Source: Chthoniobacteraceae bacterium
Lineage (GTDB): Bacteria > Verrucomicrobiota > Verrucomicrobiia > Chthoniobacterales > Chthoniobacteraceae
Direction of reading: 5' to 3'
NCBI GenBank assembly: GCA_947476045.1
Contig: CANJNZ010000032.1
Location: 1-46,526, forward strand
Length of the DNA: 46,526 nucleotides
Positions 41,116 through 46,526 of the stretch are shown piece by piece. How positions within the stretch are numbered: position 1 is the first letter of the stretch; every line of letters begins with the position of its first letter. The translations under genes were made by a program, and so were the position numbers. The notes under the pieces are model-generated. The model was not told where the DNA came from and searched no databases. It was given only the letters and a program-made list of their open reading frames with translations.

Positions 41116-41201
41116 CACGCCAACGACGTGTGGATGAGTTCGATGCCTGTTGATTTTCCAGCTTGCTTCATGGAGTTCAGAGAAGCGTTTATTCGCATAA
41201 C

Positions 41202-43529
41202 ATGGCGACCCGAAGTTACTATCAAATTGCGATTCATCATCCCGGCTTGAACAAGCATCGGGTGATTCGTGGAAATGATCGCTATCTCGTTGAAGCGGCG
41301 GCTATGACTCAACAGCGCGCTTGGGCAGAGTTATACACAAGAAAAATTTCAACCGAGGTGCGCCGAAGGGAACGCGAGAATAAGCGGCAAGAGTTGGAGG
41401 ATAACTTGAGGGAGGCTGACGAGCGCACGTTGGAAGCCCAGGCGGCGCTTTCGGAATTGCGCAGCATCCTCGCTGCTACCCTGCGCGTGGATGACCGCGT
41501 TGATTGGGCGAGCATGATGCAGCCGCCTTTTTCACAACCAAAGCCGAAGGAGCGACCCTTCGTCCCGCTGCCGCCTGAGCCAACATTCGATCCGAACGAC
41601 TGGAAGCACCGCCGCAGCTTTGTCACGGCGCTGGTTCCGTTTTTGGCGAAGCGCGCAGAAGCCGCCGCCCGTGCTGAGTTCTATGCCGCGCACGAGAAAT
41701 GGCGAGAGCGCGAGGATGCAGCAAAGGGAACGAACGAAAAAATCTATGCTGAAAATTTGCGCGAATTCGAGGACTGGCAGCGTCGTGCGGCTGCTTACGA
41801 AGAATCTCGAGTGAAGCACAACGCATCCATCGAACAAGCTCGGACCACATATCAGGCTTTAAATCCCGATGCGATTCTCGACTACTGCGATTTGGTGCTC
41901 TCGCGCTCGCAGTATGCGGACTGTTTTCCAAAGGAGTTTGAATTGGACTACCAGCCGGCGGCGAAAACGTTCGTTGTGCAATACCAGTTACCCGCGCCCG
42001 AGGATTTGCCGCGCCTCGAATCGGTGAAGTTTTCGAAAGTCAAGGGTGACTTTATCGAATCGGAACTCACGAAGCGGGAATTTGAGCAGCTTTACAGCGA
42101 TGTGGTTTTCCAAGTCGCCCTTCGCACGGTGCATGAGCTTTTCGAGGCGGATGTCGTGCGGGCGCTCAATGCGGTGATTTTCAACGGCAATGTCACCGCG
42201 CTGAACGCGGGGACGGGACACAAGGAGGAACGCTGCATCCTTTCCGTCTGCGCCGAGCGGACCGCCTTCGATGTCATCAATCTGCGAAACATCGAGCCGC
42301 GCGCGTGCTTTGAATCACTCGGCGGTATCGCGGGTGTAAAGATGCTCGACTGCCGCTCAGTGAAGCCGCTTGGCCTGATTGACCGCAGCGAAGAGAGGTT
42401 TGCCGCCGCACAGGACGTTTCCGCCGCCGCCCCGACAGGGTTGGACGAATGGCACGAACTGGCGAAGGCGATTTCCGACCCGCAGGACATTCGTTTTCTC
42501 CCGCTCGGAACAGTTGCTTCATTGCTCGGATTTCCCGCGCAGGAAAAATTTTCCGCTGCGCTGAGTCGTGAACTTGCGGAGGCAGTTGCGGCGCGTGGTT
42601 GTGCGATTGAGCCGGATGCACGTTTCGGTGCGGCCAGCTACCGCGCGGATGATGAAATCGCGCTGTTTCGCCCGCTGGCAACGCCCGTTACACCGGCATA
42701 TCCGGGCGCGGCGGCGCTGCTTCAACTGTGCGTGATGATTGCGGCGGCGGACGAGCATCCGACGGAAAAGGAATTGGAGGTTGCGCGCGATTTTATCCGT
42801 CGGAACGCTGCGCTTACGTCGCAGGAACAGCAACGGCTTCACGTTTTGGAGCACTACCTTTGCCGCAATCCGGACACGGCGAACCGCTCGCTTGGGCGTC
42901 TCGCGAAACGCCTGCCGCCCGCTCAACGCCAGCTTGTCGGCGAAGTGCTTGTGTGCGTCGCGGGCGCGGATGGCGTTATAAGTTCCGCCGAGTGGCAGGC
43001 ACTTGACCGCGCGTGCAAGGTGCTCGAACTACCGCAAAGCGCGCTTGATGAAATTCTCCGCAAGCTTGGTGCGAATTACGACGAACCGACCGTTCAGGAG
43101 GCGGAGCCTTCCGCGACCGGAGAGCCGATTCCGAAAGCGGTGGCGGCACCGTCTTTCAGGCTCGACATGACACGCGTGGCCGCGATTGCGCACGAGACAG
43201 CGGAAGTCATCGGCCTGCTCTCGGCGGTAATGCACGAGGATGAGCCAAAGCCCGAGCCGAAAGCCGCGCCGCCGCCAGTCGTTGCCGTGGAGGTGCCCGC
43301 GTGGCTCGGAACGCTCGATGTGAAGTATCATGCGGTTGCCGCACGCATCGTCGCGCGCCCGTCGTGGCCGCGCGACGAGTTTCAGCAGCTTGCCGCCGAG
43401 TTCAAAATGATGCCACTAGGCGTAGTGGACGCGCTCAACGAATGGGCAGATGAAACTCTCGGCGACTTCCTGCTCGAAGGCGACGACCCAGTGAGCGTCA
43501 ACGAATCCATCTTACCAAAACAGCCATGA
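41202..43529 (+). CDS. TerB / TerB-C domain protein, first gene of a three-gene operon
   Basis: 775 residues from the ATG at 41202; a TTG at 41163 would add 13. Visible parts: a charged coiled coil (about 50-100); a Pro-rich then helical segment; a domain at about 221-370 (VVQYQLPAPEDLPRL, then ALRTVHELFEADVVRALN and VIFNGNV) that I associate with restriction-endonuclease-like and DUF4236-type proteins; a TerB helical domain (about 500-625) with acidic AAADEHPTEKE and AGADGVISSAE pairs; and a TerB-C-like tail (about 653-775). TerB domains bind metal in tellurite-resistance and phage-defence contexts, so this is not evidence of tellurite resistance. It overlaps the ATPase gene by ATGA. Inferred to be the sensor or scaffold of a defence-type system. 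Confidence 0.8.
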   Translation: MATRSYYQIAIHHPGLNKHRVIRGNDRYLVEAAAMTQQRAWAELYTRKISTEVRRRERENKRQELEDNLREADERTLEAQAALSELRSILAATLRVDDRVDWASMMQPPFSQPKPKERPFVPLPPEPTFDPNDWKHRRSFVTALVPFLAKRAEAAARAEFYAAHEKWREREDAAKGTNEKIYAENLREFEDWQRRAAAYEESRVKHNASIEQARTTYQALNPDAILDYCDLVLSRSQYADCFPKEFELDYQPAAKTFVVQYQLPAPEDLPRLESVKFSKVKGDFIESELTKREFEQLYSDVVFQVALRTVHELFEADVVRALNAVIFNGNVTALNAGTGHKEERCILSVCAERTAFDVINLRNIEPRACFESLGGIAGVKMLDCRSVKPLGLIDRSEERFAAAQDVSAAAPTGLDEWHELAKAISDPQDIRFLPLGTVASLLGFPAQEKFSAALSRELAEAVAARGCAIEPDARFGAASYRADDEIALFRPLATPVTPAYPGAAALLQLCVMIAAADEHPTEKELEVARDFIRRNAALTSQEQQRLHVLEHYLCRNPDTANRSLGRLAKRLPPAQRQLVGEVLVCVAGADGVISSAEWQALDRACKVLELPQSALDEILRKLGANYDEPTVQEAEPSATGEPIPKAVAAPSFRLDMTRVAAIAHETAEVIGLLSAVMHEDEPKPEPKAAPPPVVAVEVPAWLGTLDVKYHAVAARIVARPSWPRDEFQQLAAEFKMMPLGVVDALNEWADETLGDFLLEGDDPVSVNESILPKQP

Positions 43530-44860
43530 GCGAAATCAAACGCCGTGAACGGGACGCCGTTCTTCAATCCCTGCAAGCGGGCCTCGTCCCGCGTCTCGGC
43601 CTACATCTTCTCCAAGTCGGGAGGAAAGATGAAGTCGCCGCGTTGCTCAAGGATTTGGAGCGAATAGAACAAGGCGGCGCGGCGTTTCGCATCGTGGTTG
43701 GCCGCTTCGGCAGCGGGAAAAGTTTCTTCTTGAATCTCATTCGCACCCTCGCGCTGCAAAAACGGCTCGTCGTCGCGCAGGCGGACTTCACGATGGAGCG
43801 GCGCATCCGCTCGACCGGCGGCGAGGCACGCGCGCTTTACTCGGAGCTCATGCGAAACATCGCCACGAAAGCGAAACCCGAAGGGGGCGCGCTGCGCAAT
43901 CTCTGTGAAAGCTGGATTTCCGATGTGCATCATAAGGTCACAAGTGCGGGCGGCAGCGAGGACGAGGTAAAGCAGCGCATCGTCGAGGATTTACGCGGGC
44001 TGCAAGAGCACGTTGGCGGCTTCGCGTTCGCGCAAGTGCTCGGCAAATACTACGAGGGGCACGCCAGCGGTAACGAAGCACTCCAAGGTAACGCGCTCCG
44101 CTGGCTGCGCGGCGAATACGCGACTAAAACGGAAGCGCGCCAAGACCTCGGCGTGCGCGACATCATCGAGGACGAAAACATTTACGACAGCCTCAAACTC
44201 ATGGGCGCGTTTTGCGCGAAAGCCGGATTCGGCGGGCTGCTTGTCGGGCTGGATGAATTGGTAGTGCTTTCGCACCGGCTCCCTAACACCCGCGTTCGTC
44301 AGGCGAATTACGAGGCGCTGCTTTCCATCATCAACGATTGCTACCAAGGCGGCGCGGCGAATGTCGGTTTCGTTCTCGCGGGCACGGATGAATGTCTCGA
44401 AGACAAGCGGCGTGGACTGCACAGCTACGAGGCGCTTCGTTCGCGGCTGGTGGAGAACAGCTATGCTGGCGAAGGCGTGCGCGATTTATCCGGGCCGGTT
44501 GTGCGGCTGCAAAATCTTACGCCGGAAGATTTGTTCGTCCTGCTCCGAAACATCCGTCACGTCCACGCGGGCGGCGACGCGGCGAAGTATCTCGTGCCCG
44601 ACGACGCGCTCGTTGCCATATTGCAACGCGCGAACGAAACGCTCGGAGCAGAGTATTTCAAAACGCCGCGCGATGTGGTGCGCTCGTTCGTCGGGTTGCT
44701 GAATGTTCTCGAACAGAATCCGGGGAAGACATGGCAGGAACTTGTCGGCGCGAACTTCATCAAAAAGGCGGATGTGCCAACCTCAGTGGAAGAAGAGGTC
44801 GCGCTTGGCATCGCGCCGCCCGCCGATGACGACGCCGAACTGCAAACCTTCAAACTCTGA
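43526..44860 (+). CDS. BrxD-like (DUF2791) ATP-binding protein
   Basis: 444 residues with a P-loop GRFGSGKSFF (Walker A about 59-66) and a Walker B-like GLLVGLDELVVL, followed by a sensor-type VGFVLAGTDECLED. The opening RRERDAVLQSLQAGLVPRLGLHLLQVG and the AAA-like layout match the DUF2791 family, which includes BrxD of type 2 BREX. BrxD is known to accompany the helicase BrxHI, and here too a helicase follows with a one-base overlap (TGATG). The ATG is inside the TerB gene stop (ATGA), so all three proteins are translationally coupled. Likely a cytoplasmic AAA-type ATPase that loads or regulates the helicase on foreign DNA; that role is inferred. Confidence 0.88.
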   Translation: MSEIKRRERDAVLQSLQAGLVPRLGLHLLQVGRKDEVAALLKDLERIEQGGAAFRIVVGRFGSGKSFFLNLIRTLALQKRLVVAQADFTMERRIRSTGGEARALYSELMRNIATKAKPEGGALRNLCESWISDVHHKVTSAGGSEDEVKQRIVEDLRGLQEHVGGFAFAQVLGKYYEGHASGNEALQGNALRWLRGEYATKTEARQDLGVRDIIEDENIYDSLKLMGAFCAKAGFGGLLVGLDELVVLSHRLPNTRVRQANYEALLSIINDCYQGGAANVGFVLAGTDECLEDKRRGLHSYEALRSRLVENSYAGEGVRDLSGPVVRLQNLTPEDLFVLLRNIRHVHAGGDAAKYLVPDDALVAILQRANETLGAEYFKTPRDVVRSFVGLLNVLEQNPGKTWQELVGANFIKKADVPTSVEEEVALGIAPPADDDAELQTFKL

Positions 44861-46382
44861 TGAGCGAGGAAGCCTTCTCGTTGCTGCATCCCGGCGTGCA
44901 GAAGGCGATTTTCCGGCGGGGTTGGAATGAACTGCACCCGATTCAGGTTGAGGCAATCCATGCGATGCTCGGCGGATCCGGGCACCTGCTCATTTGCGCG
45001 CAGACTGCGGGCGGGAAAACGGAAGCGGCGTTTCTGCCGGTCATTTCAAAACTAGCCGCTCATCCGCGCCCATCGGTTCAGGCACTTTACATCGGGCCGC
45101 TCATCGCACTTATCAACGACCAGTTTTCACGACTCGAATCGTTGTGCGGGGATGTGGAGGTTCCTGTGCATCGCTGGCACGGTGCGGCTACGGCGACGGA
45201 AAAGCGCAAGCTCCGTGATTCGCCTGGCGGGATTCTGCTCATTACGCCGGAATCGCTAGAATCGAATTTCATCAATTACGGTGTTCATCTTCGACGCATC
45301 TACGCGGATCTGGATTTCGTGGTGATAGACGAACTGCATTCGTTCCTTTCTAGCGTGCGCGGCATTCACCTTCGCAGCCTGCTCGCGCGTCTTTCCGCGG
45401 CGACAGGTCGCAAGCCCCGTGTAGTCGGGCTCTCAGCGACGCTCGGCGACCCTCTGGGCGCGCGTGCTTTCATCGCGCCGGATGCGCCGGAATCCGTAGG
45501 AATCATCAATGGCCAAGGTGGGCAGGCGATAAAGTTCGGAATCAAAGCATATCTGCGCGGCGAGCAAATCTCAGAAAATCGAATCCGCCGGCTCACGCCG
45601 GGTGCTGCGTTTGACATGGCTGTGGGACTGACTACAGAACAGACGCAAGCGTTCCATCCGCTCGAAAAGCTCGGCGCGAGTGATGATGGAATCTCGTCCA
45701 CGATAACGGACGAACTCGACGACATAGCCGCGGACATCCTAGAAAGCTGCGCGGAAGGAACGAATCTCGTGTTCGGTAACGCGAAGCAGGGATTGGAAGT
45801 GCTCGCGGACAGACTCCACAGGGAAGTGAAGAAGCGCGGAATTATTCCCGACCCCTTCCACGTTCACCACGGTTCGCTATCGAAGGATGTCCGGGAGGAG
45901 ACGGAGGCTGCGTTGAAAAGCGGAACGCCCGCGACTGTGCTTTGCTCAAGCACGCTCGAAATGGGGATAGACATCGGCTCCGTAAAGCGTGTTGCGCAAC
46001 TCGACCCGCCTTGGAGCGTCGCTTCGATGCGACAGCGGCTTGGGCGTTCTGGCCGACGGCCCGGCGACGTTGCGGTGATGCGGGTTTATACGCGCGACGA
46101 ATCGCCCCACGCCGACAGCACATTCACCGATTTACTTTTTCCGAAGCTGCTCCGCGCTGTGGCGCTCTCGCGGCTCATGCTCGCGAAGTGGCTCGAACCG
46201 CACGACGACAACCGGCTCGAACTCAGCACGCTCGTTCATCAAATTCTCAGTTGCCTCCGCGAAACCGGCGGGATGCCCGCTGCCATGCTTTTCGGCGTGC
46301 TTGTGAAGGATGGAGCATTTCGCAATGTCGGCGAAGTCATGTTTCGCAACGTGCTGCGTTCCCTCGGCGGCAAACAGCTCAT
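44860..46382 (+). CDS. Lhr/BrxHI-like DEAD/DEAH helicase, apparently interrupted
   Basis: The reading frame starts at the ATG overlapping the ATPase stop and stays open to the window edge. Helicase motifs are complete in the two RecA domains: Q-motif-like LHPIQVEAIHAM, Walker A AQTAGGKT (47-54), motif II VIDELHSF, motif III LSATLGDP, and the motif VI region QRLGRSGRRPGD. This is the Lhr-like superfamily 2 group that includes BrxHI of type 2 BREX. Family-like sequence continues to RSLGGKQLI (about residue 507). After the TA at 46382-46383 it changes to unrelated, more A-rich sequence. A normal protein of this family would be some 200 residues longer. I read this as a gene broken by an insertion, listed up to the break. 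Confidence 0.8.
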
Positions 46383-46526
46383 ACCACATTCCACAAACAA
46401 GCTGACAAAGTATTGGAAAAGAGATAAAAGGGAGGGATGGGAGGAAACACACTTAAACTGGGCAGGCCGGATGCGGCTGCACGAATTGATGAACGCTATG
46501 CGAGGGAGCCGGATGGATGGCGCAAG
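46382..46526 (+). mobile_element. possible left end of an IS630-like insertion sequence
   Basis: The helicase family pattern stops at a TA dinucleotide (46382-46383), the target used by IS630/Tc1-mariner elements. The following 50 bases are A-rich and unlike the flanks, and a new reading frame starts at 46437. Only the left end would be in the window, so neither the second inverted repeat nor the duplicated TA can be checked. Confidence 0.4.
46437..46526 (+). CDS. partial frame, possible IS630-type transposase N-terminus
   Basis: An ATG directly after an AGGGAGGG purine run opens a frame of 30 codons that runs off the window. The translation includes LGRPDAAARIDERYAREPDG and then WRK. This resembles the first residues of IS630-like transposases, which start with a helix of this kind before the winged helix-turn-helix. 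It is a pattern-memory match over 30 residues and could be wrong. It is in a different frame from the helicase. Confidence 0.35.
   Translation, partial: MGGNTLKLGRPDAAARIDERYAREPDGWRK

What the first reader, a model, noticed from the sequence alone, without database searches (positions are those of the whole stretch)
41202..46526. TerB protein + BrxD-like ATPase + BrxHI-like helicase: candidate defence operon outside BREX
Three genes overlap by 4 and 1 bases, so they are made together. The last two match the BrxD/BrxHI pair known from type 2 BREX. Instead of PglX/PglZ/PglW, they follow a 775-aa protein with coiled coil, restriction-type middle domain, TerB and TerB-C. No methyltransferase or PglZ is visible to the left. 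The cassette may be a self-contained anti-phage or anti-plasmid system, or the accessory half of one continuing to the right.
Basis: partly seen in the sequence, partly recalled or inferred. Interest (0 to 1): 0.78.

Follow-up and report, generated by a model that had tools for sequence, protein, structure and literature searches.

The report
Interrupted Shango phage-defence operon, altered SngA
The three genes are a copy of Shango, a known anti-phage system of bacteria, in which the first protein carries a front half of the kind found in a restriction enzyme and the third gene is split by a jumping element.

Summary
The three overlapping genes are real, but they are not an orphan of BREX. They are Shango (sngA-sngB-sngC), a published anti-phage system: PADLOC's SngB and SngC models beat BrxD and BrxHI widely, the gene order recurs, and the assembly holds no PglZ.

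First, the window is a whole contig whose last 146 bases are the end of a multi-copy mobile element. It splits sngC after codon 507; the C-terminal piece starts contig C80, followed by housekeeping genes. This copy is probably disabled; intact relatives exist.

Second, SngA is a chimera. Residues 1 to about 400 are homologous to the N-terminal module of Mrr-type restriction endonucleases, without the Mrr nuclease domain; TerB and TerB_C follow, in place of the usual TerB_N-TerB-TerB_C. 5 of 31 Shango loci compared have this form.

Verdict: known system, new SngA variant. Most likely SngA picks the target and SngB loads the SngC helicase; that mechanism is inferred.

The parts
41202..43529 (+). 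sngA variant, 775 aa: Mrr-enzyme-type N-terminal module (aa 1-~400), SngA linker (~415-500), TerB (505-617), TerB_C (646-772)
   Evidence: Pfam; PADLOC SngA 5.5e-32 on aa 453-772 and mREase_IV 5.8e-32 on aa 35-409; alignment with three Mrr enzymes; linker shared with TerB_N-type SngA; AlphaFold2 model
41202..42401 (+). N-terminal module of SngA (aa 1-~400): beta hairpin, long coiled-coil hairpin, alpha/beta domain; homologous to the N-terminal part of Mrr-type restriction endonucleases
43526..44860 (+). sngB, 444 aa, AAA+ ATPase with Walker A GRFGSGKS at aa 59 and DE at 243
   Evidence: PADLOC SngB 9.3e-163 against BrxD 2.5e-42; motifs
44860..46380 (+). sngC, first 507 codons, with the SF2 helicase motifs (at aa 47, 157, 192, 392); the rest of the gene is on contig G000:C80, where it ends at base 930
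   Evidence: PADLOC SngC 4.3e-163 over model positions 1-475; the C80 piece covers 466-714; compared with the intact homolog L020
46381..46526 (+). one end of a multi-copy mobile element inserted in sngC (family not identified)
   Evidence: 22 places in the own genome for this end and 19 for the other end; junction comparison

Best explanation
This is a Shango anti-phage operon (sngA-sngB-sngC) of a Verrucomicrobiota bacterium, with a variant SngA whose N-terminal module is of the kind found in Mrr-type restriction endonucleases. Proposed working, in an intact copy: (1) SngA, through its coiled-coil N-terminal module, recognises or assembles on invading DNA (inferred); (2) its TerB/TerB_C part, which stands where the Mrr nuclease would be, docks SngB, an AAA+ ATPase of the BrxD kind (inferred); (3) SngB loads or activates the SngC SF2 helicase, which moves on the invading DNA and disrupts it or its replication (inferred, by analogy with the loader role proposed for BrxD and BrxHI). 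Shown here: gene identity, operon order, recurrence, domain make-up, the domain swap and the split of sngC. In this genome sngC is split after codon 507 by a multi-copy mobile element, so the system is probably inactive. The confidence given is for identity, the swap and the interruption; for the three mechanistic steps taken together I would say about 0.4.
For: PADLOC: SngB 540 bits against BrxD 143.5; SngC 543 against BrxHI 304 on the N-terminal piece; the intact homolog L020 scores SngC 746 against BrxHI 378. NCBIfam BREX_BrxD is far under its cut-off, 142 against 350. A-B-C on one strand in 28 of 30 other loci. No PglZ in the 96.8% complete assembly. SngB at E 1e-60 rings in 0 of 14 control genomes. 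N-module: 11 of 12 viral-contig relatives carry a Mrr-like catalytic part after it, and Pfam Mrr_cat in 3 of 3 enzymes scanned; the module shows no similarity to the N-terminal half of TerB_N-type SngA by hhalign, probability 0.3 (percent), E 0.23; the linker from aa ~415 on is SngA's own. TerB fold match 2ou3_A, Z 11.4, rmsd 3.5, 123 aligned. Shango activity against phages was measured in P. aeruginosa (PMC10250203, section 20 read). Loader idea for BrxD/BrxHI: PMC12839542, section 24 read. Split of sngC.
Against: I found no experiment on a Verrucomicrobiota Shango. PADLOC's SngA model matches only the TerB-TerB_C half (aa 453-772), so SngA membership rests on half the protein plus position. 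The SngC model alone is unspecific at low scores: it rings in 13 of 14 control genomes at E 0.001. The functions of TerB and of the N-module are not established; the fold searches gave nothing above noise for the N-module (best Z 6.8), and Z 11.4 for TerB is within what helical bundles can give by chance arrangement, though Pfam finds TerB there independently. The step-by-step mechanism is analogy. The truncated SngC still holds the helicase motifs, so loss of function is not proven. The C32-C80 link is inferred from one split gene, not from reads across the element. The experimentally tested E. coli and P. aeruginosa proteins were not themselves compared.
Confidence: 0.9

Rival explanations
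1. Accessory half of a type 2 BREX locus (BrxD-BrxHI pair) whose pglX/pglZ/pglW lie beyond the edge.
For: SngB and SngC are relatives of BrxD and BrxHI (Pfam BrxC_BrxD 3.5e-142; PADLOC BrxHI 4.5e-91).
Against: Shango models win by a wide margin. No PglZ in the assembly. The 10 ORFs scanned after sngC on C80 are not BREX genes.
Confidence: 0.02
2. The mobile element does not inactivate the system: a C-terminally truncated SngC (507 residues with the helicase motifs) still works, or SngA and SngB act without it.
For: Walker A, DELH, SAT and QRLGRSGR motifs lie before the break. sngA and sngB are open over their length.
Against: About 260 C-terminal residues are cut off. A match to that part, in the same ORF as the helicase part, is found in 24 of the 25 loci (not in L046, where the contig ends). 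In BrxHI the part after the winged helix carries a beta barrel and an Lhr-type DNA-binding domain (PMC12839542).
Confidence: 0.12
3. The N-module of SngA is only a structural or oligomerisation piece with no part in recognition; specificity lies in TerB_C or SngC.
For: Much of the module is a coiled-coil hairpin. TerB_C gives weak winged-helix matches (7dg2_A Z 6.4, rmsd 3.8, 69 aligned, below the noise level named by the tool).
Against: The module is fused to a nuclease in Mrr-type enzymes, where a targeting part is expected (inference), and has a confidently predicted alpha/beta domain at about 222-372.
Confidence: 0.35

Closest known systems
Shango (SngABC)
   Same: Same three gene families in the same order; SngB matches over its length and SngC over the part present, with the rest on C80; same TerB-TerB_C half of SngA.
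   Different: SngA has a Mrr-enzyme-type N-module in place of TerB_N; sngC is interrupted here.
Type 2 BREX BrxD-BrxHI pair
   Same: AAA+ ATPase plus SF2 helicase as a neighbouring pair; may work the same way.
   Different: No PglZ in the genome; the proteins score as Shango, not BREX.
Mrr-type (type IV) restriction endonuclease, PADLOC mREase_IV PDLC03663
   Same: N-terminal ~400 residues are homologous.
   Different: The Mrr catalytic domain is absent; TerB and TerB_C stand in its place.

Membership tests
Shango (SngABC) | SngB ATPase family | tested here: met
   PDLC03959 9.3e-163 over aa 3-443
Shango (SngABC) | SngC helicase family, full length | tested here: inconclusive
   N-terminal part 4.3e-163 and C-terminal part 3.7e-52 on another contig; the gene is split here. 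Intact L020 meets it, 1.8e-224
Shango (SngABC) | SngA with TerB and TerB_C | tested here: met
   PF05099 and PF15615 above cut-off; PADLOC SngA 5.5e-32 on aa 453-772
Shango (SngABC) | TerB_N in SngA (common: 21 of 31 loci by a profile built here; not shown to be required) | tested here: not met
   No PF13208 match; no profile similarity of the N-module to the TerB_N-type half
Shango (SngABC) | Anti-phage activity | not testable with these tools
   Shown for the P. aeruginosa system in PMC10250203, not for this one
Type 2 BREX | PglZ | tested here: not met
   PF08665 absent from the own genome; rings in 2 of 14 controls
Type 2 BREX | PglX, PglW and BrxC | not tested
   Not searched in the whole genome; none among the 10 C80 ORFs scanned
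Type 2 BREX | BrxD equivalog | tested here: not met
   NF033438 142 bits, cut-off 350
Mrr-type restriction endonuclease | Mrr catalytic domain (PF04471) | tested here: not met
   No match in SngA at E 0.01; present in L074, L086 and L087

The most novel reading that the evidence does not exclude
SngA is a plug-in adaptor: the same invader-recognition module is wired either to its own nuclease (Mrr-type enzymes) or, through TerB/TerB_C, to a loadable helicase (Shango). TerB_C would then be the general docking part that hands a marked DNA to the SngB-SngC motor, and changing SngA's front half changes what Shango sees.
Probability: 0.3. Interest if true: 0.6.

Novelty: new variant of a known kind. 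Interest (0 to 1): 0.35.

Why it matters
The papers on Shango that I could search report activity but I saw no mechanism, and the parts of SngA have no assigned roles. A natural swap, in which SngA's N-terminal half is exchanged for the front half of a restriction enzyme while SngB, SngC and the TerB-TerB_C half stay, says that this half is separable and may decide recognition. That gives a direct test. It also shows that Shango occurs in Verrucomicrobiota with an SngA of which PADLOC's model sees only the second half. The locus itself is an interrupted copy and of modest interest.

Tried and rejected
Orphan or partial BREX: rejected by score, by the missing PglZ and by the flank. Homology of the N-module to TerB_N: no similarity. 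A known fold for the N-module: no Foldseek match at E 0.001 or better in PDB or BFVD, and best VIA-align Z 6.8 to a staph-cAM373-type lipoprotein (3ib5), under the noise level named by the tool; this shows neither a new fold nor its absence. A solved relative by sequence of the N-module (E up to 0.1) or of SngB (E up to 0.01): none; L020's SngC finds Lhr-type and other SF2 helicases. Empty site: in the closest species with both flanks held (G316) neither sngA nor sngB lies in the stretches around the flanking genes, but these lie on different contigs there, so no simple empty site was shown. Identity of the mobile element: its interior is not in the contigs found; Pfam gave no family for the left end and only a match under its cut-off for the right end; the stretches held for three related copies in genome G317 stop at the match, and I recognised no transposase among the ORFs listed (by reading only). 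No target duplication was settled. SngB in phage records: none; in viral contigs none, but that search with one protein finds close relatives only. For the right end, an Apo-CII label (E 0.054) was taken as chance.
Full report
What is in the sequence. The window is the whole contig C32 of the assembly G000, which has 4.37 Mb in 123 contigs and is 96.8% complete. Three + strand genes run to its right end, 41202-43529, 43526-44860 and 44860 onward, overlapping by 4 bases and 1 base. Pfam gives TerB and TerB_C in the first, BrxC_BrxD in the second, DEAD and Helicase_C in the third.

What it is. Against PADLOC the second protein scores SngB 540 bits and BrxD 143.5, the third SngC 543 and BrxHI 304; the first matches SngA over aa 453-772 and the mREase_IV model PDLC03663 over aa 35-409. 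NCBIfam's BrxD model reaches 142 of the required 350 bits. The Shango of a Klebsiella grimontii plasmid (L075) shows the same pattern at higher scores: SngA 350 bits, SngB 618, SngC 936, and 146 with NCBIfam's BrxD model. The SngC model alone is not specific at low scores: it rings in 13 of 14 control genomes at E 0.001; SngB at E 1e-60 rings in none of 14. Shango is a published three-gene anti-phage system with TerB-like protein, ATPase and helicase (PMC10250203; passages, section 20); a review table credits Millman et al. 2022 and Johnson et al. 2022 (PMC10952713, one passage). The Millman paper itself was not seen, and the tested E. coli and P. aeruginosa proteins were not compared here. 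The operon is therefore Shango and not a remnant of BREX. PglZ is absent from the assembly.

The right end. The last 146 bases of the window recur at 22 places in the genome, the window included. At the 11 of these whose place in the contig could be read (C32, C77, C114 twice, C90, C91, C73, C15, C80, C112, C68), all lie within a base of a contig end. 8 left and 4 right junctions show a common element with different flanks. The other end recurs at 19 places. The next best SngC match of the genome lies at the start of contig C80 (178 bits; the following one has 83) and covers model positions 466-714, while the window piece covers 1-475. Against the intact SngC of L020 the window piece ends at codon 507, which corresponds to about 509, and the C80 piece begins at 510. 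So sngC is split by the insertion. The helicase motifs lie before the break. On C80, of 10 ORFs scanned after sngC, Pfam names a histidine phosphatase, a short-chain dehydrogenase, a release factor, a BrkB-like protein, a response regulator, a PfkB kinase, two ferredoxin-oxidoreductase-type subunits and a ribonucleotide reductase; the tenth gave a marginal match. Three of them scanned with PADLOC gave nothing at E 1e-10.

Signs of acquisition. In G316, the closest species with both flanks held, homology to the window's left flank stops at 41116 (41121 in G318), and homology to C80 starts at C80:964, 34 bases after the sngC stop; neither sngA nor sngB is found in the stretches held. SngB at E 1e-60 or better occurs in 1 of 10 genomes of the genus and 2 of 40 of the family, 12 of 384 of the class and 12 of 288 of the phylum; each count includes the own genome, and the samples overlap. 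The flanking genes lie on separate contigs in G316, so the empty site was not shown.

Recurrence. I compared 31 loci: the window, 8 from genome contigs (two of them Planctomycetota), 11 from the phylum search, 5 new ones from the class search, and 6 plasmid loci that I picked out of 693 plasmid records with a match. Three fetched loci were dropped as duplicates (L053, L097, L101). An ORF next to sngB, then sngB, then sngC stand on one strand in 28 of the other 30; in L046 no sngC was found, as sngB lies at the contig end, and L098 has no long ORF in the place of sngA. For sngA the test was the longest ORF ending within 250 bases of sngB; not each was scanned with Pfam, and in L055 it is the fragment left by an IS3 insertion. 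The seven loci L040-L046 form a distant branch, and the three of them scanned with Pfam have TerB_N and TerB_C but no TerB match, so they may be a separate kind.

The variant SngA. By two profiles built here, 5 of 31 loci carry the Mrr-type N-module in SngA (window, L020, L047, L049, L102), 21 carry TerB_N and 5 neither. Of the five, L102 was not used to build the profile (2.9e-108). Of the 21, nine were used to build the TerB_N profile, and the six of the L040-L046 branch match only weakly (2e-5 to 5e-4). Of the last five, L042 has TerB_N by Pfam, L055 is split by IS3 with TerB_N annotated upstream, L098 lacks sngA, and L021 and L022 have other N-termini with weak resemblance to the Mrr-type module. 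In a tree of the 31 SngB proteins the five Mrr-type rows lie in one clade of 15 (97/99), as two groups; a single origin is possible but not shown (56% of 200 bootstrap trees).

Where the module comes from. tblastn in plasmids finds the N-module in 19 records, of which 16 are annotated as restriction endonuclease. Pfam finds Mrr_cat after the module in the three enzymes scanned, from a plasmid (L074) and two genomes of the same phylum (L086, L087). In viral contigs 11 of 12 relatives carry a Mrr-like catalytic part; in the twelfth the frame stops inside the match; none matched the TerB queries. Among 387 genomes of the phylum the module occurs in 6, of which 3 are SngA (own, G080, G085), 2 are Mrr enzymes and 1 (G004) was not examined further. 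The alignment shows homology up to about residue 400 of the window protein and a parting there. The stretch 415-500 resembles TerB_N-type SngA proteins such as L050 (4e-8) and L025 (1e-5), so the two halves meet at about 400-415. The module has no similarity to the TerB_N-type N-terminal half by hhalign.

Structure. AlphaFold2 gives the module at pLDDT mostly over 90: a beta hairpin (7-24), a long coiled-coil hairpin (27-93, 146-218) and an alpha/beta domain (222-372). 397-493 is of low confidence. The TerB region matches a TerB crystal structure (2ou3_A, Z 11.4, rmsd 3.5, 123 aligned); for helical folds the tool counts Z under about 13 as possibly a common arrangement, but Pfam finds TerB there too. 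The C-terminal 697-775 gives winged-helix matches at Z 6.4 and lower, under the noise level. The module alone has no match above noise.

How it may work. BrxD is described as an ORC/Cdc6 AAA+ ATPase and a possible loader of BrxHI, which has wHTH, barrel and Lhr-type C-terminal domains after its helicase core (PMC12839542, section 24 read; a term search of its main text finds neither TerB nor Shango). SngC groups with BrxHI, DruE and DpdJ helicases in another study (PMC12278908, passages). By analogy SngB would load SngC, and SngA would choose the target. That its front half is shared with Mrr-type enzymes supports a targeting or assembly role for this half. All of this is inference; I put the whole scheme at about 0.4.

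In print. I searched the held library for Shango with SngA/B/C, with TerB, with helicase, ATPase and mechanism, for Shango alone from 2024 (88 papers, 40 listed, many not about defence), for TerB with Mrr and for Mrr with coiled coil and TerB. In the listings and passages I saw there was no mechanism of Shango and no Mrr-type SngA; subscription papers are mostly not held.

Noticed in passing
window 46381-46526; C80:1-149: A mobile element with about 20 near-identical copies breaks the assembly at many contig ends; it begins ATACCACATTCC and ends AGATGGTAT. Its family was not identified.
   Followed up: partly
L055 2148-6008: In a Yoonia vestfoldensis plasmid sngA is split by an IS3 family transposase gene, a second Shango operon interrupted by a mobile element.
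   Followed up: no
L021 3054-5999, L022 3962-5995: SngA proteins with a third kind of N-terminus, weakly like the Mrr-type module.
   Followed up: partly
L040-L046: A distant Shango-like branch in other classes of the phylum; SngA of the three scanned has TerB_N and TerB_C without a TerB match.
   Followed up: no
plasmids collection: SngB relatives in 693 plasmid records, 451 of them Klebsiella and 144 Salmonella, 544 predicted conjugative.
   Followed up: no
L135 342-5611: A restriction endonuclease with the same N-module stands right after a gene of an AAA-domain protein (3567 bases), near a DNA methyltransferase.
   Followed up: no
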